DNA of 64,000 nt from Urbifossiella limnaea (GTDB lineage: Bacteria; Planctomycetota; Planctomycetia; Gemmatales; Gemmataceae), in the NCBI RefSeq assembly GCF_007747215.1, contig NZ_CP036273.1:3890322-3954321 (forward strand), in the 5' to 3' direction. The notes beneath the pieces are model-generated. The model was not told where the DNA came from, ran no database searches, and worked only from the letters and a program-made list of their open reading frames with translations. Position numbers and translations under genes: made by a program. Numbering within the stretch: position 1 is the first letter of the stretch; each line of letters starts with the position of its first letter. Of this stretch, positions 17,923-60,105 are shown in pieces.

Positions 17923-20900
17923 ATGCTTCGCAAGTGGTTCGCCCGCCTGCCCGGTCTCTACCAGATCCCGTCCCGCCGCGACCGCCGCTCGGCACGGGCC
18001 ACGCCGCCCAGCCGACCGCGATTGCGAGTCGACCCGCTGGAGGACCGGACCGTGCCGGCGACGGTGACGTGGGACGGCGGCGGCGGCAACTTCGACTGGA
18101 ACACGGCCGCGAACTGGAGTGCGGACGTGCTGCCCGGGGCGAGTGACGATGTAGTGATCGACCTCGGGAGCAATAACTTCGCGGTCACGCATTCGGCAGG
18201 CGACACCGCAATTCAAAGCCTGAGGAACTTGGCATCCCTCAGACTTGTCGGCGGTACGCTCGACATCGCCGCTGCCTCGTCTGTTGCCAAGGACCTATTC
18301 CTCACCTCAACTCTTTCTGGCAGCGGAAACTTGAGCATCGGAGGCGAGTTCGCGTGGTCGGGCGGGGCCATGACGGGCGCGGGCACGACGACGGTGCTGG
18401 CGGGCGGGACGTTGACCGGCACCGGCGGCCACCTCCGGCTGTCGGGCCGCACGCTGGCCAACGCCGGCACCGGCAGCTGGAACTCGCAGCGGTTCATTCT
18501 CAGCAACGGCGCGGCGGTCGTTAACTCCGGGTCGTTCGCCATCGGCAGCCTCGACATGTACGGCGAGGCCGGCGGCGGCAGCTTCACCAATACGACGACC
18601 GGTTCGATCACCAAGACGGCCAACGCGAGCACCGCCTACATCTATGACGGCGTCGGGTTTTCCAACGCTGGCTCGGTGCAGGTCGGCAACGGAACCCTGT
18701 GGATCGACACCCCGGGAACCAGCAGCGGGTCGTTCGATGGCGCGGTGAACACGACGTTGGTGCTCTACCAGCAGAACCTGACGGCGACGTCACGCGTCTC
18801 CAGCGCCGGGACGGTCGGGCTGACCGGCACGACGGTGGCGGGCAGTTACGCGGTGACCGGCGCGACCGACACCGGGGCGGTTGACTTCACCGGCACGGTC
18901 TCCAGCGTCGGCAAGCTGACCGTCTCCGGCACGACCGATTTCCACGGCATCGCCGTCAGCCCGAGCGACCTGTATTTGACGGGCACCCTGCAGAGCAACG
19001 CCCCGATCACTGTTGCCGGGACGTTCGCGTGGTCGGGCGGGGCCATGACGGGCGCGGGCACGACGACGGTGCTGGCGGGCGGGACGTTGACCGGCACCGG
19101 CGGCCACCTCCGGCTGTCGGGCCGCACGCTGGCCAACGCCGGCACCGGCAGCTGGAACTCGCAGCGGTTCATTCTCAGCAACGGCGCGGCGGTCGTTAAC
19201 TCCGGGTCGTTCGCCATCGGCAGCCTCGACATGTACGGCGAGGCCGGCGGCGGCAGCTTCACCAATACGACGACCGGTTCGATCACCAAGACGGCCAACG
19301 CGAGCACCGCCTACATCTATGACGGCGTCGGGTTTTCCAACGCTGGCTCGGTGCAGGTCGGCAACGGAACCCTGTGGATCGACACCCCGGGAACCAGCAG
19401 CGGGTCGTTCGATGGCGCGGTGAACACGACGTTGGTGCTCTACCAGCAGAACCTGACGGCGACGTCACGCGTCTCCAGCGCCGGGACGGTCGGGCTGACC
19501 GGCACGACGGTGGCGGGCAGTTACGCGGTGACCGGCGCGACCGACACCGGGGCGGTTGACTTCACCGGCACGGTCTCCAGCGTCGGCAAGCTGACCGTCT
19601 CCGGCACGACCGATTTCCACGGCATCGCCGTCAGCCCGAGCGACCTGTATTTGACGGGCACCCTGCAGAGCAACGCCCCGATCACTGTTGCCGGGACGTT
19701 CGCGTGGTCGGGCGGGGCCATGACGGGCGCGGGCACGACGACGGTGCTGGCGGGCGGGACGTTGACCGGCACCGGCGGCCACCTCCGGCTGTCGGGCCGC
19801 ACGCTGGCCAACGCCGGCACCGGCAGCTGGAACTCGCAGCGGTTCATTCTCAGCAACGGCGCGGCGGTCGTTAACTCCGGGTCGTTCGCCATCGGCAGCC
19901 TCGACATGTACGGCGAGGCCGGCGGCGGCAGCTTCACCAATACGACGACCGGTTCGATCACCAAGACGGCCAACGCGAGCACCGCCTACATCTATGACGG
20001 CGTCGGGTTTTCCAACGCTGGCTCGGTGCAGGTCGGCAACGGAACCCTGTGGATCGACACCCCGGGAACCAGCAGCGGGTCGTTCGATGGCGCGGTGAAC
20101 ACGACGTTGGTGCTCTACCAGCAGAACCTGACGGCGACGTCACGCGTCTCCAGCGCCGGGACGGTCGGGCTGACCGGCACGACGGTGGCGGGCAGTTACG
20201 CGGTGACCGGCGCGACCGACACCGGGGCGGTTGACTTCACCGGCACGGTCTCCAGCGTCGGCAAGCTGACCGTCTCCGGCACGACCGATTTCCACGGCAT
20301 CGCCGTCAGCCCGAGCGACCTGTATTTGACGGGCACCCTGCAGAGCAACGCCCCGATCACTGTTGCCGGGACGTTCGCGTGGTCGGGCGGGGCCATGACG
20401 GGCGCGGGCACGACGACGGTGCTGGCGGGCGGGACGTTGACCGGCACCGGCGGCCACCTCCGGCTGTCGGGCCGCACGCTGGCCAACGCCGGCACCGGCA
20501 GCTGGAACTCGCAGCGGTTCATTCTCAGCAACGGCGCGGCGGTCGTTAACTCCGGGTCGTTCGCCATCGGCAGCCTCGACATGTACGGCGAGGCCGGCGG
20601 CGGCAGCTTCACCAATACGACGACCGGTTCGATCACCAAGACGGCCAACGCGAGCACCGCCTACATCTATGACGGCGTCGGGTTTTCCAACGCTGGCTCG
20701 GTGCAGGTCGGCAACGGAACCCTGTGGATCGACACCCCGGGAACCAGCAGCGGGTCGTTCGATGGCGCGGTGAACACGACGTTGGTGCTCTACCAGCAGA
20801 ACCTGACGGCGACGTCACGCGTCTCCAGCGCCGGGACGGTCGGGCTGACCGGCACGACGGTGGCGGGCAGTTACGCGGTGACCGGCGCGACCGACACCGG

Positions 20901-23900
20901 GGCGGTTGACTTCACCGGCACGGTCTCCAGCGTCGGCAAGCTGACCGTCTCCGGCACGACCGATTTCCACGGCATCGCCGTCAGCCCGAGCGACCTGTAT
21001 TTGACGGGCACCCTGCAGAGCAACGCCCCGATCACTGTTGCCGGGACGTTCGCGTGGTCGGGCGGGGCCATGACGGGCGCGGGCACGACGACGGTGCTGG
21101 CGGGCGGGACGTTGACCGGCACCGGCGGCCACCTCCGGCTGTCGGGCCGCACGCTGGCCAACGCCGGCACCGGCAGCTGGAACTCGCAGCGGTTCATTCT
21201 CAGCAACGGCGCGGCGGTCGTTAACTCCGGGTCGTTCGCCATCGGCAGCCTCGACATGTACGGCGAGGCCGGCGGCGGCAGCTTCACCAATACGACGACC
21301 GGTTCGATCACCAAGACGGCCAACGCGAGCACCGCCTACATCTATGACGGCGTCGGGTTTTCCAACGCTGGCTCGGTGCAGGTCGGCAACGGAACCCTGT
21401 GGATCGACACCCCGGGAACCAGCAGCGGGTCGTTCGATGGCGCGGTGAACACGACGTTGGTGCTCTACCAGCAGAACCTGACGGCGACGTCACGCGTCTC
21501 CAGCGCCGGGACGGTCGGGCTGACCGGCACGACGGTGGCGGGCAGTTACGCGGTGACCGGCGCGACCGACACCGGGGCGGTTGACTTCACCGGCACGGTC
21601 TCCAGCGTCGGCAAGCTGACCGTCTCCGGCACGACCAGTTTTATCCCGGCTATCGGACCGCAGTCCCTCACCATTCCGGAATTGACCGTAATCGGAACGC
21701 TGCGGGGCGCGGACGATTTCCTCGTGACGGGCTCGTTTAACTGGTCTGGCGGCACGCTTCAAGGCGTCGCCGGTCTCGGTAGCCTCACCGTCCTCAGCAA
21801 CATGACGCTCAACGGCACGTACTCCATCCGCGACTTTACCCTCATCAACGCTGGCGACGCGGTCTGGTCCGGCGGAGCGGTGAACTTCTACGGTGCCGAC
21901 AGTCACTTCACCAACCTGTCGGGGGCGACGTTCGAGGACCGGGCGGGCGGGCACTTCGGCAGCGCCGATAACAACTGCCCCGACTTCGAAAACCAAGGCC
22001 TATTCCGAAAGACCACCGCCACCACCACGGACCTGCACATGCAGCTGTTCAACAGCGGCAGCGTGCAGGTCGAGCAAGGGTCGCTCAACATCGATTGCGG
22101 CCTCGTGCAGGTCACGACGACGACGAGCGGCGGCAGTAGTTCCGGCACGATCACCGGAAACTTCAGCGGGCCGGTCACGACCGCCGTCGTCAACTCCGGT
22201 CAGGTGTCGTCGCAGCCCTCGCCCACGCCGCCGCCACCCGTCACCAACTACACCCAGACCGCCACGGGCAGCTTGACGGAGTTGATCGGCGGGCTGACAC
22301 CGGGCACCGGGTACGGTCAGATCGTCGTGAACGGGAACGTCAGCCTGGCCGGGACGTTGTCCATCGTCCTCACCAACGGCTTCTCTCCGCACCTGAATGA
22401 CACGTTCACGATCATCGACAACCGGGGCAGCAACTCGGTCGTCGGCACGTTCTCCGGCCTGCCGGAGGGGGCGACTGTTAAGATCGGGAGCATCACGTAT
22501 CAGATCAGTTACCAGGGCGGGACCGGCAACGATGTGGTGTTGGCGGTCATCTCGGTCAACGCCCCGCCGACCGCCAACGCCGGCGGGCCATACACCGTCG
22601 CGGAGGGTGGGTCCGTCACGCTCGACGGCTCGGGCAGCAGCGACCCGGACCAGTCGGCCGGCACGCTCACCTACACGTGGGATCTGGACGGCGACAACGT
22701 TTTCGGCGAGACGGGCGCGGCCGCCGGGCGCGGCGACGAGGTTGGCGTGAACCCGACGTTCTCGGCGGCCGGCCTCGACGGCTTCGCCGGGGCCGCGGTC
22801 GCGGTGCGGTTGCGCGTCACGGACTCGGCGGGGGCGAGCAGCGACGGCAGCGCCACGGTCAACATCACCAACGCGAACCCGATCCCCGTGATTTCTTCGA
22901 TCGGCACCGTCCGGGTCGAAGGCACGTCGATCGCGGTCACCGGGTCGGCGACCGACCCCGCCGGGGCGAACGACACCCTGACCTTCGCGTGGGCGGTCTA
23001 CGTGGGTAGTTCTGCCTCCGCGTTCGCCACGGGCGGCAACGGTACGTCTTTCAGCTTCACGCCCACGGACAACGGCAGCTACCGCATCGTGCTGACCGTC
23101 TCCGACGAGGACGGCGGGGCGGCGACGACCGAACAGACGATCGCCGTGGGCAACGCCACCCCCGCGGCCTTCAACGGCGGCGCGACCACCGGCACAGAGG
23201 GTACGTCGGTCCTGCTGACCGGCTCTGCCACCGACGCCGGGGCTATCGACCAGGCCGCCGGGTTCACGTACGTCTGGACCGTCACCCGCAGCCGCGACGG
23301 CGGTGCGACCTTCTCCCCCTACGTCGTCGGCAGTGGGGCGGCCCTCACCCTGAACCCGAACGACGACGGCCTCTACCGCGCGACCCTCACCGCGACGGAC
23401 AAGGACGGCGCGACTAGCGCGCCGGCGACGCACACGATCGCGGTCGGGAACGTCACGCCGTCGGCGACGGTCTCCGGCCCGACGACCGGGCAGGTCGGTA
23501 TCGACTTCTCGGTACAAGTCGCCAGCGCATCCGATCCCAGTTCGGTGGACGCGGCCGCGGGCTTCACGTACCAGTGGTCCGTCCTGCGGTGCGGTACGCC
23601 CGTCGATCTGACCGGCGTCGCCACGACCGGAACGACCCTGAACTTCAGGCCGACCGAACCCGGCGCTTACACCGTCACCATGACGGTGACGGACAAGGAC
23701 GGCGGGGCGACGACCGCGTCGCACCTCGTCACCGTCGGCGCACCCTCCGGCGTGACGCTGCTGCCCGGTGGCCTACTGGTGATCGTCGGGACCAGCTGCG
23801 ACGACGACATCAAGGTGAATCCGGGCGGCGGGGCACCGGAGATCAAGGTGAAGTTGAACGGCGTGCAGTCCACCTACGTGGGCGTTACCGCGATCGTGGT

Positions 23901-24435
23901 CTACGCCGGCGCGGGGGACGACTTGGTACAGGTCGCCGGCGGGGTGACGGTGCCGCTGACGGTGTTCGGCGGGACCGGGAACGACCTGCTGAAGGCGGGC
24001 GGGGGGAACAGCATCCTCGTCGGCGGCGACGGGTGCGACGTGCTGCTCGGGGGAAACGGCCGGGACATCCTGATCGGCGGCCGCGGGTCGGACCTGATCG
24101 GCGGTCAAGGGGCGGACGACATCCTGATCGCCGGGTATACGGCGTTCGACGGCAACTTGGCTGCGCTCGATCTCGTCCGGGCCGAGTGGTCATCCGCCCG
24201 GTGTTTCTCCGACCGGGTGGCGAACCTGTCCGGGACCGGCACGACCGGGGTGAACGGTGAGGCGGTGTTGCGGGCGACCGGCCCGACGGCGACGGTGTTC
24301 GACGACGCCGCCTGCGACCTGCTCGCAGGCGGCGGCGGGAGCGATTGGTTCATCTTCAACAGCGTGGGTGGCCCGCACGTCGATCTCGTGGCGGACATGT
24401 CGGCGTTCGAGGGGCTGTTCGACACGGACCTGTGA
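17923..24435 (+). CDS. Giant secreted repeat protein (tandem 225-residue repeats, PKD-like domains, RTX-like C-terminus)
   Basis: 2170 residues. The basic leader and VDPLEDRTVPA mark a planctomycete extracellular protein. GGGGNFDWNTAANWSADVLPG (around residue 48) is the entry motif of autotransporter-like beta-helix passengers. Residues about 143-1238 are almost five copies of a 225-residue repeat starting FAWSGGAMTGAGTTTVLAGG. PKD/Ig-like domains follow (about 1545-1945, TANAGGPYTVAEGGSVTLDG and similar). Near the end are glycine-rich GGTGNDLLKAGG and GGNGRDILIGGRGSD repeats of the Ca-binding RTX type. The ATG at 17923 has GGAG upstream; a GTG at 17884 is possible. Likely role is surface coat or adhesion. 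It starts 66 bp after the fused sigma gene. Confidence 0.88.
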   Translation: MLRKWFARLPGLYQIPSRRDRRSARATPPSRPRLRVDPLEDRTVPATVTWDGGGGNFDWNTAANWSADVLPGASDDVVIDLGSNNFAVTHSAGDTAIQSLRNLASLRLVGGTLDIAAASSVAKDLFLTSTLSGSGNLSIGGEFAWSGGAMTGAGTTTVLAGGTLTGTGGHLRLSGRTLANAGTGSWNSQRFILSNGAAVVNSGSFAIGSLDMYGEAGGGSFTNTTTGSITKTANASTAYIYDGVGFSNAGSVQVGNGTLWIDTPGTSSGSFDGAVNTTLVLYQQNLTATSRVSSAGTVGLTGTTVAGSYAVTGATDTGAVDFTGTVSSVGKLTVSGTTDFHGIAVSPSDLYLTGTLQSNAPITVAGTFAWSGGAMTGAGTTTVLAGGTLTGTGGHLRLSGRTLANAGTGSWNSQRFILSNGAAVVNSGSFAIGSLDMYGEAGGGSFTNTTTGSITKTANASTAYIYDGVGFSNAGSVQVGNGTLWIDTPGTSSGSFDGAVNTTLVLYQQNLTATSRVSSAGTVGLTGTTVAGSYAVTGATDTGAVDFTGTVSSVGKLTVSGTTDFHGIAVSPSDLYLTGTLQSNAPITVAGTFAWSGGAMTGAGTTTVLAGGTLTGTGGHLRLSGRTLANAGTGSWNSQRFILSNGAAVVNSGSFAIGSLDMYGEAGGGSFTNTTTGSITKTANASTAYIYDGVGFSNAGSVQVGNGTLWIDTPGTSSGSFDGAVNTTLVLYQQNLTATSRVSSAGTVGLTGTTVAGSYAVTGATDTGAVDFTGTVSSVGKLTVSGTTDFHGIAVSPSDLYLTGTLQSNAPITVAGTFAWSGGAMTGAGTTTVLAGGTLTGTGGHLRLSGRTLANAGTGSWNSQRFILSNGAAVVNSGSFAIGSLDMYGEAGGGSFTNTTTGSITKTANASTAYIYDGVGFSNAGSVQVGNGTLWIDTPGTSSGSFDGAVNTTLVLYQQNLTATSRVSSAGTVGLTGTTVAGSYAVTGATDTGAVDFTGTVSSVGKLTVSGTTDFHGIAVSPSDLYLTGTLQSNAPITVAGTFAWSGGAMTGAGTTTVLAGGTLTGTGGHLRLSGRTLANAGTGSWNSQRFILSNGAAVVNSGSFAIGSLDMYGEAGGGSFTNTTTGSITKTANASTAYIYDGVGFSNAGSVQVGNGTLWIDTPGTSSGSFDGAVNTTLVLYQQNLTATSRVSSAGTVGLTGTTVAGSYAVTGATDTGAVDFTGTVSSVGKLTVSGTTSFIPAIGPQSLTIPELTVIGTLRGADDFLVTGSFNWSGGTLQGVAGLGSLTVLSNMTLNGTYSIRDFTLINAGDAVWSGGAVNFYGADSHFTNLSGATFEDRAGGHFGSADNNCPDFENQGLFRKTTATTTDLHMQLFNSGSVQVEQGSLNIDCGLVQVTTTTSGGSSSGTITGNFSGPVTTAVVNSGQVSSQPSPTPPPPVTNYTQTATGSLTELIGGLTPGTGYGQIVVNGNVSLAGTLSIVLTNGFSPHLNDTFTIIDNRGSNSVVGTFSGLPEGATVKIGSITYQISYQGGTGNDVVLAVISVNAPPTANAGGPYTVAEGGSVTLDGSGSSDPDQSAGTLTYTWDLDGDNVFGETGAAAGRGDEVGVNPTFSAAGLDGFAGAAVAVRLRVTDSAGASSDGSATVNITNANPIPVISSIGTVRVEGTSIAVTGSATDPAGANDTLTFAWAVYVGSSASAFATGGNGTSFSFTPTDNGSYRIVLTVSDEDGGAATTEQTIAVGNATPAAFNGGATTGTEGTSVLLTGSATDAGAIDQAAGFTYVWTVTRSRDGGATFSPYVVGSGAALTLNPNDDGLYRATLTATDKDGATSAPATHTIAVGNVTPSATVSGPTTGQVGIDFSVQVASASDPSSVDAAAGFTYQWSVLRCGTPVDLTGVATTGTTLNFRPTEPGAYTVTMTVTDKDGGATTASHLVTVGAPSGVTLLPGGLLVIVGTSCDDDIKVNPGGGAPEIKVKLNGVQSTYVGVTAIVVYAGAGDDLVQVAGGVTVPLTVFGGTGNDLLKAGGGNSILVGGDGCDVLLGGNGRDILIGGRGSDLIGGQGADDILIAGYTAFDGNLAALDLVRAEWSSARCFSDRVANLSGTGTTGVNGEAVLRATGPTATVFDDAACDLLAGGGGSDWFIFNSVGGPHVDLVADMSAFEGLFDTDL
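18349..21636 (+). repeat. Tandem 675-bp repeats, four full copies plus a 588-bp partial copy
   Basis: Unit starts are at 18349, 19024, 19699, 20374 and 21049, exactly 675 bp apart, all in frame. The fifth unit diverges at 21637. I found no difference between copies, and translations of successive units in three frames are the same, so the nucleotide identity is near or at 100 percent. Flanking repeats outside the array differ, so the array arose recently or is being homogenised. Confidence 0.95.
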
Positions 24436-24715: not shown

Positions 24716-24787
24716 CAGCTGGCCGTGGGCGACTTGACGGAGCGGACGCGGGCGCGGAGTTCTGCTGTCGCTGACGGCTAACGAAAG

Positions 24788-24813
24788 CCCGGCCGGGCCG
24801 TCACCCGGCCGGG
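24788..24813 (-). terminator. Hairpin terminator of cassette copy A
   Basis: A perfect 10-bp stem CCCGGCCGGG with a 6-base loop, just past the stop of the 54-aa membrane protein. On the minus strand it is followed by CTTTCGTT, a weak T-rich stretch. The second cassette has a matching hairpin at the same place. Confidence 0.65.
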
Positions 24814-24831
24814 GATCGTCTGTTGCATACC

Positions 24832-24996
24832 TCACCGCCGGGCGAGGCGGATGCTCCCGCCCCACACGCCCAGGCCGAGCAGCCCGAGCAGGAACGCCAC
24901 GAACGCCCACCACGACTGAAACGCCAGCCCGAGCCACCCGGCCACGACCGCCGCCCCCGTCGCGTGCAGCTGGTTCAGCTTCTGCCGCGCACCCAT
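24832..24996 (-). CDS. 54-residue single-pass membrane protein (cassette copy A, third gene)
   Basis: The frame begins MGARQKLNQLHATGAAVVAG and continues into a long hydrophobic stretch (WLGLAFQSWWAFVAFLLGLL) before a basic tail ending LARR. It would form one or two membrane helices. The ATG at 24996 has a near-perfect ribosome site, AAAGGAGGTAAGTG, directly upstream. A copy in the second cassette (58830-59003) is about 85 percent identical in the shared part, which supports a real gene under selection. It is the last gene of the cassette and lies 39 bp after the 94-aa gene. I do not recognise the family and infer no function. Confidence 0.8.
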   Translation of the reverse strand: MGARQKLNQLHATGAAVVAGWLGLAFQSWWAFVAFLLGLLGLGVWGGSIRLARR

Positions 24997-25035
24997 CACT
25001 TACCTCCTTTGGTCTCGATTGTCGAATATCGCCGG

Positions 25036-25320
25036 CTACCGCGGCCGCGGCTTCCGGCCCGGAGCCGGCAGCGCCGGCGGGGGCGGCGGGGCCAACCCGC
25101 CCGGCCCGTCGCCAGTGGCCTTCAGCCCCCGTGACCGCCGCTGGACCTCGGCCGCGGCCCCGTCGAGGCCGTCCGCCTGCCACGCCGCCGCGAGCTTGTC
25201 CAGGCCGCCGGCCCGGCCGGCCGCGCCGGCCAGGAAGTCGGCCTCCAGCTCCTGCACCGCCCGGGCGGCCAGGAGCACCTTCACCCGGTCCACCAGCGGC
25301 CCCAGGATCGTCGCAAACAT
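25036..25320 (-). CDS. 94-residue protein of unknown function (cassette copy A, second gene)
   Basis: It starts MFATILGPLVDRVKVLLAAR, an amphipathic helix. A helical segment rich in Ala/Gly follows (ELEADFLAGAAGRAGGLDKL, AAAWQADGLDGAAAEVQRR), then a Pro-rich basic tail (PPPPPALPAPGRKPRPR). I chose the ATG at 25320 over the adjacent in-frame GTG (25323) because GGGAGG lies seven bases before it. It begins 31 bp after the sigma-like gene. The counterpart at 59044-59324 is frameshifted. The helix pattern and basic tail would suit a protein or nucleic-acid partner, but that is a guess; family unknown. Confidence 0.75.
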   Translation of the reverse strand: MFATILGPLVDRVKVLLAARAVQELEADFLAGAAGRAGGLDKLAAAWQADGLDGAAAEVQRRSRGLKATGDGPGGLAPPPPPALPAPGRKPRPR

Positions 25321-25351
25321 CACCTGCCTCCCCTCGTGTTGCCGGCCCCGG

Positions 25352-25978
25352 TCACGCGGGGCCGTCGTGGAAAGCCTCCCACTGTTCGGCCAGCTCGCGG
25401 CGGAGCTGGCTAACCCGGGCCGGTGTGACGCCGAGCCGGGCCGCGGCCGCCCCCGTCCCCCACCCGGCCGCCAGCAGGTCCAGTGCAGCTTGGCTCGCCG
25501 GCGTCAGCCCGCCGCGGAACCGGGGGAAGTCGACGCGGAAGGCGGCCTGGTCGGGGACCTTCACCCGCGGGTCGGCCGCCGCCAGTTCCGCCGCCACCAC
25601 CTCCCCGGGACGTCGGCGCCGACCCCGGTCGCGGTCCCCGAGCCGCTCGACCCGCACCCGGCCGCGGAGCCGGGCGAGCGGCGAGAGGACGTCGCGGGCC
25701 CTCTCCGCCCCGCACACCCGGCGGCCGCCCAGCGCCGCCTGGGCCGCGCGTCGGGCGATGGTGGTGACGAACTTCCCCGGCTCCTTCCCCCGTCGGAGGA
25801 GCGCGACGTAGCACCGCCAGGCGAGGGCCACCGCCTCGGCCTCCAACTCTTCCCGGGCGTCCGGGCACGGCACCCGGCGGGTCGCGAACCGGGCGACCGC
25901 CTCCACCCGCGGCAATGCGGCGGCGAACGCCTCCCCGGCCGCCGGCCCCGGTCGGGCCGCCGACAGTGTGACGCACAT
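25352..25978 (-). CDS. Sigma-70-like helix-turn-helix protein (cassette copy A, first gene)
   Basis: 208 residues from the ATG at 25978 (MCVTLSAARPGPAAG). The N-terminal half has a region-2-like helix set (FAAALPRVEAVARFATRRVP, AREELEAEAVALAWRCYVAL, KFVTTIARRAAQAAL). The C-terminal half has a region-4-like helix-turn-helix (LTPASQAALDLLAAGWGTGA, AAARLGVTPARVSQLRRELA). That layout is an ECF sigma factor with a divergent region 2, and a long Arg-rich linker lies between. It may drive the cassette or other loci. A longer frame from 26002 exists but the duplicated copy also starts at this ATG. Intact here, frameshifted in the second cassette. Confidence 0.75.
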   Translation of the reverse strand: MCVTLSAARPGPAAGEAFAAALPRVEAVARFATRRVPCPDAREELEAEAVALAWRCYVALLRRGKEPGKFVTTIARRAAQAALGGRRVCGAERARDVLSPLARLRGRVRVERLGDRDRGRRRRPGEVVAAELAAADPRVKVPDQAAFRVDFPRFRGGLTPASQAALDLLAAGWGTGAAAARLGVTPARVSQLRRELAEQWEAFHDGPA

Positions 25979-26170
25979 GTGTTGTCTCCGACGCGTGATC
26001 ACGTGGCCGGGCCGAGACGTGGCGGCCGGCGGGGCCGGATGCTGCTCGTCCCCAGTGATGCTGACAGCCGGAGGTGGCGGATTCAGGCGGACCGGGGTTC
26101 CACGGCTTTAACCGCGCCGGGGAAGGGAAGTCGCTCAGACGACAGTTCGCGGCGATCAACCGGCTCGGGG

Positions 26171-26349
26171 CAGTGTCGGGTCAGTGTCGGGTGCCGAACC
26201 GACGCGGATTAGTTGCGCAAAATGCTTCTTTATAACCATTTACGTCGAATTCACGGGTCAGTGTCGGGTGTCGGGTGAGAGGGAGTGGTCACGACCCCCG
26301 CAGGCCGGCACGGCCGCTCCCCGCCCACTTACCCGACACCCGACACTGA
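26171..26349. repeat. Iterated CAGTGTCGGGT motifs and a 19-bp inverted repeat
   Basis: CAGTGTCGGGT occurs twice in tandem (26171-26181, 26182-26192), again at 26259-26269, and inverted at 26338-26348. TCAGTGTCGGGTGTCGGGT at 26258-26276 is perfectly inverted at 26331-26349, giving a 19-bp stem with a 54-base loop. It lies upstream of cassette copy A. Two further partly matching GTCGGGT elements occur at about 26404 and 26423. Confidence 0.8.
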
Positions 26350-26479
26350 GACTCGGTGGAGTCGCAAACCTTGTTTTTGCAGTGGGTAACGGCCCGGAGC
26401 AGCGTCGGGTGGGTACCCGACTCTGACCCGACGCTCGGCCCCGGGTGTCGACGGGGCGAGTGGCACGCGCGAGACACTC

Positions 26480-26690: not shown

Positions 26691-26855
26691 GACGCGTTGC
26701 GCCACTGTTTCGCGACCCAGCTGCTGGAGGATGGGGCAGACGTGCGGACGGTCCAGGAGCTGCTAGGGCATGCGAACCTGGAGACGACGATGATTTACAC
26801 CCACGTACTGAACAAGGGCGGGCGGGGGGTGACCAGCCCGGCTGACCGGCTGTGA
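26691..26855 (+). pseudogene. C-terminal fragment of an integron-type (IntI/Xer) tyrosine recombinase
   Basis: The frame reads [40 protein letters not shown] and [14 protein letters not shown], then TGA. This is the C-terminal end of a tyrosine recombinase: the LRHxFAT box, the HxN box and the catalytic Tyr in MIYTHVL. [13 protein letters not shown] is characteristic of integron integrases. Only about 55 codons remain; the rest of the catalytic domain is missing upstream, where unrelated sequence begins at about 26690. It cannot be active. Confidence 0.8.
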
Positions 26856-57923: not shown

Positions 57924-58793
57924 ACCGCCTGCCCTGCGGCACCCACAGTCACTTCTTACTCGACTCCTTGACGAACCTAACGGTCTGCTCCGGCGCCGGG
58001 AGCCGCACCCCTGTCGGGCACGTCGACGGTCACGTGAGAGCAGGACTTTGAGAAGTGCCGCCAGTACCCTGCCGTCTGGTGGGGCCTCGCGATGGCACGT
58101 AGCCCGCATCTTGGACGGGGAGTAGTTGCAAGGCACGATGCCCCTGGGTACAGCTGCAACACCGACACGGGTCGCATGCATCACACGATGCGCGATCGGT
58201 CCGACACGCCGAGGGTGGTTCTCGTTCGGGGCTGGCCTTCTCGCCACGGTCCTGCACGACGCACGACCCTTCTGGCCCTCGCGATAGCAGGACCACGCGG
58301 ACGGAGTGGGCGTACGGCGGGCGCGATAGCCGCACCCCACCCCGCCCGGACCCGGGCGGCGAGATCGACGAAGCCGACGAGAACCGCACCCGCCGGGTGA
58401 CCGCGATGTCCCATCCCGCCGAGCCGGCCCGGCACGCCCCCTTCCGCCTCACCCCACTGCCTCCACCGCACCACGCACGACCCTTCCGACCGTCGGGCGG
58501 TGCCTACGACTCGACTTGGGCGAGGGTCGTGCAGCGTCGTGCAGCGTCTGGCGTACCGACATCACGAATGGTGGTCGCACGGGCCATCGCGACGCCACTC
58601 GACGTACGACCCGTCCGACCCTCGGACGCATCGTGCCCGACGGGCGGCCGGTTCCGTCCCTCCGCACGCGGCAGCTTATTCGAGCCGGCCCCGAACCCCG
58701 GTGCCGAGGGTCGGAAGCGTCGTGCGTCGTGCGAGGTCGGGCCCCCGCGGTCACCCCACAGCGGTCGGCGGCCCCGCTGACGGCTAACAAGAA
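57924..58793. repeat. Gene-free region with iterated GTCGTGC / GCACGAC motifs
   Basis: No convincing gene in 870 bp. GTCGTGC or its complement GCACGAC recurs: GCACGACGCACGACCCTTC at about 58255, CACGCACGACCCTTCCGACC near 58463, GTCGTGCAGCGTCGTGCAGC near 58527 and GTCGTGCGTCGTGCG near 58719. Both orientations occur, so it could be a protein-binding array or decayed small repeats. It lies between the kinase and cassette copy B. Confidence 0.5.
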
Positions 58794-58822
58794 CCCCGGC
58801 CGGTCGAGCTGACCGGCCGGGG
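58794..58822 (-). terminator. Hairpin terminator of cassette copy B
   Basis: A perfect 12-bp stem, CCCCGGCCGGTC with GACCGGCCGGGG, around the 5-base loop GAGCT. On the minus strand it is followed by TTCTTGTT. It starts 7 bp past the stop of the small membrane protein gene, as in copy A. Confidence 0.7.
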
Positions 58823-58829
58823 ATCTCTG

Positions 58830-59003
58830 CTACCGGGCCAACCGGCCGGAGCGTCTGATGCTCCCGCCCCACACCCCCAGCCCCGGCAGCCCGAGCAGGA
58901 ACGCCACGAACGCCCACCACGACTGGAACGCCAGCCCCAGGAACCCGGCCAGGACCGCCGCCCCCGTCGCGTGCAACTGGTTCAGCTTCCGACGCGCACC
59001 CAT
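58830..59003 (-). CDS. 57-residue membrane protein (cassette copy B, third gene)
   Basis: It begins MGARRKLNQLHATGAAVLAG and continues with FLGLAFQSWWAFVAFLLGLP, then GLGVWGGSIRRSGRLAR. It is almost the same as the 54-residue protein at 24832, with substitutions mostly conservative. One or two membrane helices with basic ends are predicted. The ATG at 59003 is in the same position relative to the second gene as in copy A and is preceded by GGAGGTGG. It is the only one of the three genes still open in this copy, which may mean selection acts on it or that decay has not yet reached it. Confidence 0.75.
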   Translation of the reverse strand: MGARRKLNQLHATGAAVLAGFLGLAFQSWWAFVAFLLGLPGLGVWGGSIRRSGRLAR

Positions 59004-59043
59004 CACCCACCTCCCTCCGGTTCCGATTGTCGAATATGGCCCG

Positions 59044-59324
59044 TCACCGCGGCCGCGGCTTGCGGCACGCACCCAGCAGCGCTGGCGGTGGCGGCCCGCC
59101 CGGCCCGTCACCGTCCGCCGCCTTCAGCCCGCGGGACCGCCGCTGGACCTCGGCCGCGGCCCCATCAAGCCCGTCCGCTGACCACGCCGCGGCCAGCCGG
59201 TCGAGGCCGCCGGCCCGGCCGGCGGCGCCGGCCAGGCATTCGGCCTCCAGCTCCTGCACCGCGCCCGGGCGGCCAGGAGCACCTTGACCCGGTCCACCAA
59301 GGGACCCAGGATCGTCGCGAACAT
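59044..59324 (-). pseudogene. Frameshifted homologue of the 94-aa protein (cassette copy B)
   Basis: From the ATG at 59324 it reads MFATILGPLVDRVKVLLAAR, as in copy A. Two extra bases then appear in the GCCCGGGCGCGGTGCAGG region (59265-59275), and the remainder (VQELEAECLAGAAGRAGGLD, AAAWSADGLDGAAAEVQRR) is in another frame. Without that insertion the protein would match copy A closely to the end (RKPRPR). Confidence 0.75.
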
Positions 59325-59355
59325 CCCCCACCCCCTCTCGTGTTGACGCTCCTGG

Positions 59356-59981
59356 TCACGCGGGGCCGTCGTGGAACGCTGCCCACTTCTGGGCCAGCTC
59401 ACGGCGGAGCTGGCTGACGCGGGCCGGGGTGACGCCGAGCCGGGCCGCGGCCGCCCCCGTCCCCCACCCCGCCGCCAACAGGTCCAGCGCGGCCTGAGTT
59501 GTGGGCGTCAGTTCCTCGCGGAACCGGGGGAAGTCGACGCGGAAGGCGGCCTGGTCCGGGACCTTCATCCGCGGATCGGCCGCCACCAGCTCCGCCGCTA
59601 CGACCTCTCCCGGACGCTGGCGCCGACCCGGCACGCGGTCCCCGAGCCGCTCAACTCGCAACCGGCCGCGGAGCCGGGCGAGCGGCGAGAGGGCGTCGCG
59701 GAGCTTCTCGATCCGCACACGCGACTGCCGCCCAGCGCCGCCTGGGCCGAGCGTCGGGCGATGGTCGTGACGAACGCCCCCGGGTCCTTCCCCCGCCGGT
59801 GGAGGGCGACGTAGCACCGCCAGTCGAGGGCTACGGCCTCGGCCGCCAGTTCCTCGCGAGCGTCCGGGCACGGCACCCGGCGGGTCGCGAACCGGGCGAC
59901 CGCCTGAACTCGCGGCAATGCTGCGGCGAACGCCTCCTCGGCCGCTGGCCCGGGTCGGGCCGCGGACAGCGTGACGCACAT
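59356..59981 (-). pseudogene. Frameshifted homologue of the sigma-like protein (cassette copy B)
   Basis: From the ATG at 59981 it reads MCVTLSAARPGPAAEEAFAA through FVTTIARRSAQAALGG in one frame. Near 59712 one base is missing relative to copy A (GTGTGCGGATC for GTGTGCGGGGC), and the rest (EKLRDALSPLARLRGRLRVE, LTPTTQAALDLLAAGWGTGA, GVTPARVSQLRRELAQKW) is in the next frame. All other conserved text is present, so it is a single-indel pseudogene. Confidence 0.8.
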
Positions 59982-60105
59982 GGTCTGTCTCCGACGCGTG
60001 ACATCTGGGCCGGTCGGCGACGTGGCGGCCGGCGGGGCCGGATGCTCCTCGTCCCCGGAGATGCTGACAGCCGGATGGCCGAGATTCAGACGCCAGCGGG
60101 TTCAC

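What the first reader, a model, noticed from the sequence alone, without database searches (positions are those of the whole stretch)
24768..26105. A duplicated, unrecognised three-gene cassette: sigma-like HTH protein, 94-aa protein, 54-aa membrane protein
The same order, strand, small spacings and terminating hairpin occur here and at 58778-60105. The products are a sigma-70-like helix-turn-helix protein, an amphipathic-helix protein with a Pro-rich basic tail, and a 54-57 aa membrane protein with near-perfect ribosome sites. The small membrane protein is the best conserved. A sigma-like gene driving two tiny companions looks like a self-contained regulatory or mobile unit. I do not know a described system of this shape; that part is inference.
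Basis: partly seen in the sequence, partly recalled or inferred. Interest (0 to 1): 0.75.

Follow-up and report, generated by a model that had tools for sequence, protein, structure and literature searches.

The report
Sigma-factor cassette with a dispersed regulon
A planctomycete carries four scattered copies of a small three-gene unit headed by a sigma-factor-like gene, and the unit shares a rare promoter-like DNA signature with this genome's MoxR-ATPase/sliding-clamp operons and recombinase elements, so it looks like a detached control module for mobile-element genes rather than an unknown mobile system of its own.

Summary
The cassette is real and occurs four times in the 7.8-Mb genome, not twice. 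The second window copy is damaged: its sigma and 94-aa genes are frameshifted and only the membrane protein is intact. None of the three proteins passes a curated family cut-off. All three do belong to families found in a larger planctomycete operon: sigma-like gene, MoxR ATPase, vWA protein, DUF6744, DnaN-like clamp, 94-aa family, membrane family. In this genome that operon is split: four core operons lack the three genes, and four cassettes carry them.
The 5' edge of cassette conservation is a promoter-like signature, CTNAA-N16-GTCA-NN-AT. Exact matches (CTDAA) number 11 in the whole genome: four at cassettes, three at core operons (the fourth has one mismatch), four within about 2 kb of genes of two recombinase elements. 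In 1.18 Mb of fetched loci there are 23 matches at spacing 16 and 3 at all other spacings from 10 to 23. The signature also precedes these operons in other genomes.
Best reading: an ECF-like sigma factor drives its own cassette and, in trans, the core operons. Sigma-promoter recognition is inferred, not shown. Mobility of the cassette is unproven.

The parts
26058..26086 (-). promoter-like signature of cassette c1: CTGAA-N16-GTCA-GC-AT, 108 nt before the sigma start codon
25352..25978 (-). gene 1 (208 aa): sigma-70/ECF-like protein, sigma2-like N-domain, about 60-residue low-confidence linker, sigma4-like HTH
25036..25320 (-). gene 2 (94 aa): helical protein with Pro/basic tail; family also seen in the core operons of other genomes
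24832..24996 (-). gene 3 (54 aa): small membrane protein, conserved M(G/S)ARxKLN...SW..F...G.IR family
24786..24816 (-). terminator-type hairpin after gene 3; stem kept in all four copies with different sequence
26166..26435 (.). array of direct and inverted AGTGTCGGGT repeats upstream of c1; c4 has a similarly laid out array with unit AGTGTCGAGT
60061..60089 (-). promoter-like signature of cassette c3: CTGAA-N16-GTCA-GC-AT
59356..59981 (-). second window copy (c3), sigma gene, frameshifted by a 1-nt deletion
59044..59324 (-). second window copy (c3), 94-aa gene, frameshifted by a 2-nt insertion
58830..59003 (-). second window copy (c3), membrane protein gene (57 aa), open
58791..58823 (-). 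terminator-type hairpin of c3

Best explanation
The cassette is one transcription unit, from promoter to terminator, headed by an ECF-like sigma factor. The sigma factor directs RNA polymerase to a dedicated promoter, CTNAA-N16-GTCA-NN-AT. It thereby drives its own cassette (positive autoregulation) and, in trans, the four MoxR-vWA-DUF6744-DnaN-like-clamp core operons elsewhere in the genome, and possibly recombinase elements that carry the same signature. The 94-aa and 54-aa proteins are small accessory components of that MoxR/clamp system; in relatives they are encoded in the same operon. In this genome the operon is split into four cores that lack the three genes and four cassettes that carry them. 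Shown: copies, selection, family membership, operon relationship, sigma-type fold match, the signature and its distribution. Inferred: that this sigma recognises the signature, that control is in trans, and what the two small proteins do.
For: Sigma identity: AF2 model has a three-helix N-domain and an HTH C-domain; Foldseek/VIA hits are dominated by ECF and sigma-70 factors, sigma4 part aligned at 1.4-2.4 A over 56-67 residues, Z 9-10. Operon relationship: G340 has short-sigma > MoxR > vWA > DUF6744 > clamp > C48 > 94-aa family > membrane family; full-length sigma sits inside or next to the same genes or a large serine recombinase in G344, G347 and G004. This genome has four DUF6744 loci, each with MoxR, vWA and clamp genes, and no sigma, 94-aa or membrane gene detected beside them (whole-genome counts). 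Signature: all four cores and all four cassettes carry CTNAA-N16-GTCA 90-160 nt before the first gene. Whole-genome search: 11 exact sites; 4 cassettes, 3 cores (4th with one mismatch), 2 in an integrative element with a sigma homologue, 2 in an element with a serine recombinase; the last four were not used to define the motif. Spacing control: 23 hits at 16, 3 at the 13 other spacings together. The signature also lies upstream of the operon in G340, G002, G347, g20 genomes and an IMG/VR contig, in variant form in G006, and of sigma genes in L150 and L151. Small genes under purifying selection.
Against: No experiment links this sigma to the motif. Genomes of genus g20 have operon plus signature, but no sigma homologue was found in them. 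Several sigma loci lack the signature within 700 bp (L148, L153-L157; the L149 MoxR operon too). In the two recombinase elements the sites lie about 1-2 kb from the genes named. The motif was first seen by eye in these loci. The background model for the PWM test comes from a GC-rich genome, so p-values for AT-richer relatives are optimistic. Sigma2 sequence similarity is below Pfam's cut-off.
Confidence: 0.6

Rival explanations
1. The cassette is a decaying remnant of the MoxR/clamp operon, multiplied by ordinary duplication or by an unidentified recombinase, with no present function; the signature is inherited from the parent operon.
For: One copy is frameshifted in two genes and one is split by an IS630-type insertion. 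The stub keeps the families found at the head and the tail of the operon and lacks the middle.
Against: dN/dS is 0.17-0.39 across copies in all three genes, the leader and the terminator stem are kept, and two copies are fully open.
Confidence: 0.2
2. The cassette is itself a mobile unit that copies and inserts, a miniature derivative moved in trans by the recombinase of the larger elements.
For: Four dispersed copies in unrelated surroundings; flanks are mostly unalignable although dS is only 0.1-0.4, so about the length of one transcription unit was duplicated. Large serine recombinases accompany the sigma family elsewhere.
Against: No terminal inverted repeats or target duplications found, no solo ends, no empty site available, and c1-c3 similarity runs about 110 bp further upstream. 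The sharp 5' edge coincides with the promoter-like box, so it need not be an element end.
Confidence: 0.15
3. The signature is an operator for another DNA-binding protein, or a promoter for a host sigma factor, and the cassette protein acts differently.
For: Operon plus signature without a detectable sigma homologue in g20 genomes.
Against: Fixed 16-nt spacing, same orientation as the genes and typical promoter distance; only 11 exact sites genome-wide, confined to this system and two recombinase elements, which is odd for a host factor.
Confidence: 0.2

Closest known systems
ECF (group IV) sigma factors
   Same: sigma2 + sigma4 architecture, about 200 aa, fold matches to ECF factors, signature before its own gene as in positive autoregulation
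   Different: about 60-residue linker (ECF norm under 50, PMC8103513), no recognised anti-sigma beside it, boxes CTNAA/GTCANNAT instead of AAC/CGT, sequence below Pfam cut-offs, linked to mobile-element operons
MoxR-vWA-centred ternary conflict systems (Kaur et al. 2020, PMC7159879; Pfam bpMoxR PF20030)
   Same: core operons linked by the signature have a bpMoxR-type AAA+ ATPase and a vWA protein, in planctomycetes
   Different: third component is DUF6744 plus a DnaN-like clamp; no beta-propeller was seen; the paper's text does not contain 'sliding clamp' or 'sigma factor'
Integrative elements with large serine recombinases that carry their own regulators
   Same: sigma family and signature occur beside large serine recombinases and a GP88-family gene
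   Different: the window cassettes have no recombinase beside them; only a 52-aa tyrosine-recombinase remnant lies near c1

Membership tests
ECF sigma factor | only sigma2 and sigma4 domains | tested here: met
   AF2 model: helices 12-83 and 151-204; fold hits dominated by ECF and sigma-70 factors. Model confidence is modest (mean pLDDT 66.5).
ECF sigma factor | linker under 50 residues between the domains | tested here: not met
   residues 90-149 are an unstructured low-confidence linker of about 60 residues; criterion from PMC8103513, later relaxed in that review
ECF sigma factor | promoters with AAC (-35) and CGT (-10) | tested here: not met
   signature is CTNAA(T/G) and GTCANNAT; CGTC occurs in part of the sites, not in the cassettes; assignment of the signature to this sigma is itself inferred
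ECF sigma factor | positive autoregulation | tested here: inconclusive
   the signature precedes the sigma gene in all four cassettes and in L150, L151; no expression data
ECF sigma factor | co-transcribed cognate anti-sigma factor | tested here: inconclusive
   the 94-aa and 54-aa proteins match no family; p94 single-sequence model is a helical hairpin
ECF sigma factor | core RNA polymerase binding and promoter-specific transcription | not testable with these tools
   needs in vitro transcription
MoxR-vWA ternary system (linked core operons) | MoxR AAA+ ATPase plus vWA protein | tested here: met
   bpMoxR E 4.9e-47 in L188; vWA homologue beside it, VWA_2 E 7.5e-4 for a relative, below the curated cut-off
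MoxR-vWA ternary system (linked core operons) | one of the described third components (VMAP, iSTAND, FtsH, beta-propeller) | not tested
   the third component seen here is DUF6744 plus a DnaN-like clamp; the described components were not searched for systematically
Insertion sequence / miniature transposable element (cassette) | defined ends with target-site duplication, own or trans transposase | tested here: inconclusive
   no transposase inside, no terminal repeats or duplications seen, no solo ends; no empty sites to compare

The most novel reading that the evidence does not exclude
A stand-alone sigma cassette has become a trans-acting master switch for several MoxR/vWA/sliding-clamp operons scattered over one chromosome, with a dedicated promoter used by nothing else in the cell. 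The 94-aa and 54-aa proteins together act as a two-piece membrane-tethered anti-sigma factor that keeps the switch off.
Probability: 0.12. Interest if true: 0.8.

Novelty: new variant of a known kind. Interest (0 to 1): 0.6.

Why it matters
It connects orphan small proteins and a divergent sigma family of planctomycetes to a MoxR/vWA/clamp operon through a concrete, searchable promoter signature. Genomes can be scanned for the signature to find further operons and the elements that carry them. If the sigma-promoter pairing holds, it gives a dedicated regulon that spans several loci and an orthogonal expression tool for a phylum with few genetic parts.

Tried and rejected
Integron-cassette idea (IntI-like fragment beside c1, GTTAGCC after the hairpin): dropped, the 3' hairpin is terminator-like with a different sequence in each copy and no attC-type core pair was found. 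PRTRC plasmid system (recalled from memory from a ubiquitin-like gene near distant membrane-protein homologues): the ubiquitin-like protein gave only weak NCBIfam hits, so not claimed. Phage origin: no sigma relative in IMG/VR; one distant membrane-protein relative there lies in the same MoxR operon. Flank repeat arrays as element ends: the exact units are specific to cassette flanks but differ between copies and are not at all four, so left unexplained. Cassette leader against core leaders by plain alignment was unconvincing; only the spaced signature is shared. The p94 model gave no lead. No paper on DUF6744 in the held library.

Full report
Observation. The three genes lie on the minus strand at 25978-25352 (208 aa), 25320-25036 (94 aa) and 24996-24832 (54 aa), with a terminator-type hairpin behind them. 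The whole 7.8-Mb genome (one contig) holds four copies: c1 (this one), c2 at 1640674, c3 (the second window copy) and c4 at 4672360. Aligned, they are 85-91% identical from about 110 bp before the sigma start codon to just after the hairpin. In c3 the sigma gene has lost one base and the 94-aa gene has gained two, so only the membrane gene is open; in c4 an IS630-type element (DDE_3, perfect 12-bp terminal repeats by eye) sits between genes 1 and 2. dN/dS is 0.20-0.29 for sigma, 0.34-0.39 for the 94-aa protein and 0.17-0.20 for the membrane protein between open copies. The proteins have been under selection. The c3 frameshifts are recent or are assembly errors.

What the proteins are. No curated family takes any of the three: Pfam gives Sigma70_r2 at 19.9 bits (cut-off 24) and HTH_23 at 18.4 (24.6) for gene 1 and nothing for the others; NCBIfam, PHROGs and PADLOC give nothing useful. 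An AF2 model of gene 1 from five sequences has a three-helix N-domain, a low-confidence linker of about 60 residues and an HTH domain. Foldseek (best E 0.04) and VIA-align hits are dominated by sigma factors, mostly ECF. Thirteen divergent homologues share ...GRR...D...D(F/W)..W...R(V/I)SQLRRE. The membrane protein belongs to a planctomycete family (10 of 95 genomes of the bacterial family; also other families). The 94-aa protein family is rarer (4 of 95). The full sigma profile matches 18 of 95.

Where the families live elsewhere. In G340 (same bacterial family) one operon reads short-sigma, MoxR, vWA, DUF6744, DnaN-like clamp, C48, 94-aa family, membrane family. The short-sigma genes are region-2-only relatives of gene 1 (E about 1e-12). 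G002, in the window's own genus, has short-sigma, MoxR, vWA, DUF6744 and the 94-aa family on one contig and clamp plus membrane family on another. In G344 and G347 full-length sigma sits between MoxR and vWA; in G344 a large serine recombinase and a GP88-family gene lie just upstream. In G004, sigma lies between a serine recombinase and ThiS-like/ThiF genes. The clamp assignment rests on a profile search against solved structures (DNA polymerase III beta, E 5.5e-13); MoxR is bpMoxR (E 4.9e-47); DUF6744 is PF20529.

In the window's own genome, DUF6744 occurs four times, each time in a MoxR-vWA-DUF6744-clamp-C48 operon, and no sigma, 94-aa or membrane gene was detected beside any of them. The cassettes therefore hold what these cores lack. 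One core operon's MoxR gene is split around a group II intron reverse transcriptase. That both sets number four may be coincidence; I did not find pairing.

The promoter-like signature. Upstream of all four core operons lies GCTWAA-N16-GTCA. Cassette conservation begins exactly at YCTGAA-N16-GTCA (read by eye, then scripted). The stricter pattern CTDAA-N16-GTCA-NN-AT has 11 exact matches in the whole genome: the four cassettes, three of the four cores (the fourth, at 1078219, has one mismatch), two at 4503852/4504178 in an integrative element with a sigma homologue and several recombinases, and two at 2198386/2198870 ahead of a gene set with a serine recombinase. By base composition I estimate under one chance match (own estimate, not a tool output). 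As a control for spacing, the same boxes at spacings 10-23 in 1.18 Mb of fetched loci gave 23 hits at 16 and 3 at all 13 other spacings together. Outside this genome the signature lies 80-500 bp upstream of the operon in G340, G002 (two loci), G347, four g20 loci and an IMG/VR contig, in variant form in G006, and about 100-150 bp upstream of sigma genes, in variant form, in L150 and L151. It was not found within 700 bp upstream at L148, L149, L099, L146, L153-L157 and L159.

Mechanism. The simplest reading is a dedicated sigma-promoter pair: the cassette sigma drives its own unit and the core operons in trans. The steps shown are fold match, selection, operon relationship, and signature with its distribution. 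The sigma-signature pairing, trans control and the role of the two small proteins are inferred. The strongest counter-evidence is that g20 genomes have operon and signature but no detectable sigma homologue. What the MoxR/clamp operon does is unknown. MoxR-vWA ternary systems are proposed conflict systems in multicellular bacteria (PMC7159879); the clamp suggests an action on DNA replication or repair (inference).

Mobility. Four dispersed copies with mostly unalignable flanks at modest dS show that about one transcription unit was copied to new places. The 5' edge is explained by the promoter-like box, no transposase or terminal repeat was found, c1-c3 similarity continues about 110 bp upstream, and no solo ends exist. 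I leave mobility open. Repeat arrays flank some copies, with exact units not found elsewhere or nearly so; they are unexplained.

Verdict. A new variant of a known kind: an ECF-like sigma unit tied to mobile-element and MoxR/clamp operons through a specific signature. The finding is more interesting than 'duplicated unknown cassette' because it yields a testable regulon, but the central pairing needs an experiment.

Noticed in passing
window 26697-26852 (+): 52-aa C-terminal fragment of a tyrosine recombinase (Phage_integrase E 3.5e-14), IntI-like ending [22 protein letters not shown], a remnant beside cassette c1.
   Followed up: partly
window 26166-26435; L013:8017-8282: Arrays of direct and inverted repeats upstream of c1 and c4 with similar layout but different unit (AGTGTCGGGT, AGTGTCGAGT); the pattern CGACACTGANNCGACACTG occurs only at these two places in the genome.
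   Followed up: partly
window 58475-58725; L013:10913-11270: Hairpin arrays of GCACGACNCTTCCGACC downstream of c3 and c4; six copies in the genome, five of them here.
   Followed up: partly
L186:11561-15091 (G000:C1, about 1.075 Mb): MoxR gene of one core operon split around a group II intron reverse transcriptase with HNH domain.
   Followed up: partly
L161:7327-7412, L176:16651-16723, L165:15302-15381, L179:15418-15478: Intergenic hairpins whose arms are short tandem repeats (such as GGGGTGAAGGGGTGAA), each with its own unit; terminator-like.
   Followed up: no
window 18200-21700: ORF pattern repeating every 675 bp on both strands inside the 2170-aa ORF 17923-24435, pointing to near-identical tandem protein repeats.
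   Followed up: no
L088, L091-L094: Another planctomycete gene cluster combines DUF2997, DUF1257, an AAA ATPase, a DnaN-like clamp and the same small membrane protein family, in some cases with ThiS-like and ThiF genes.
   Followed up: partly
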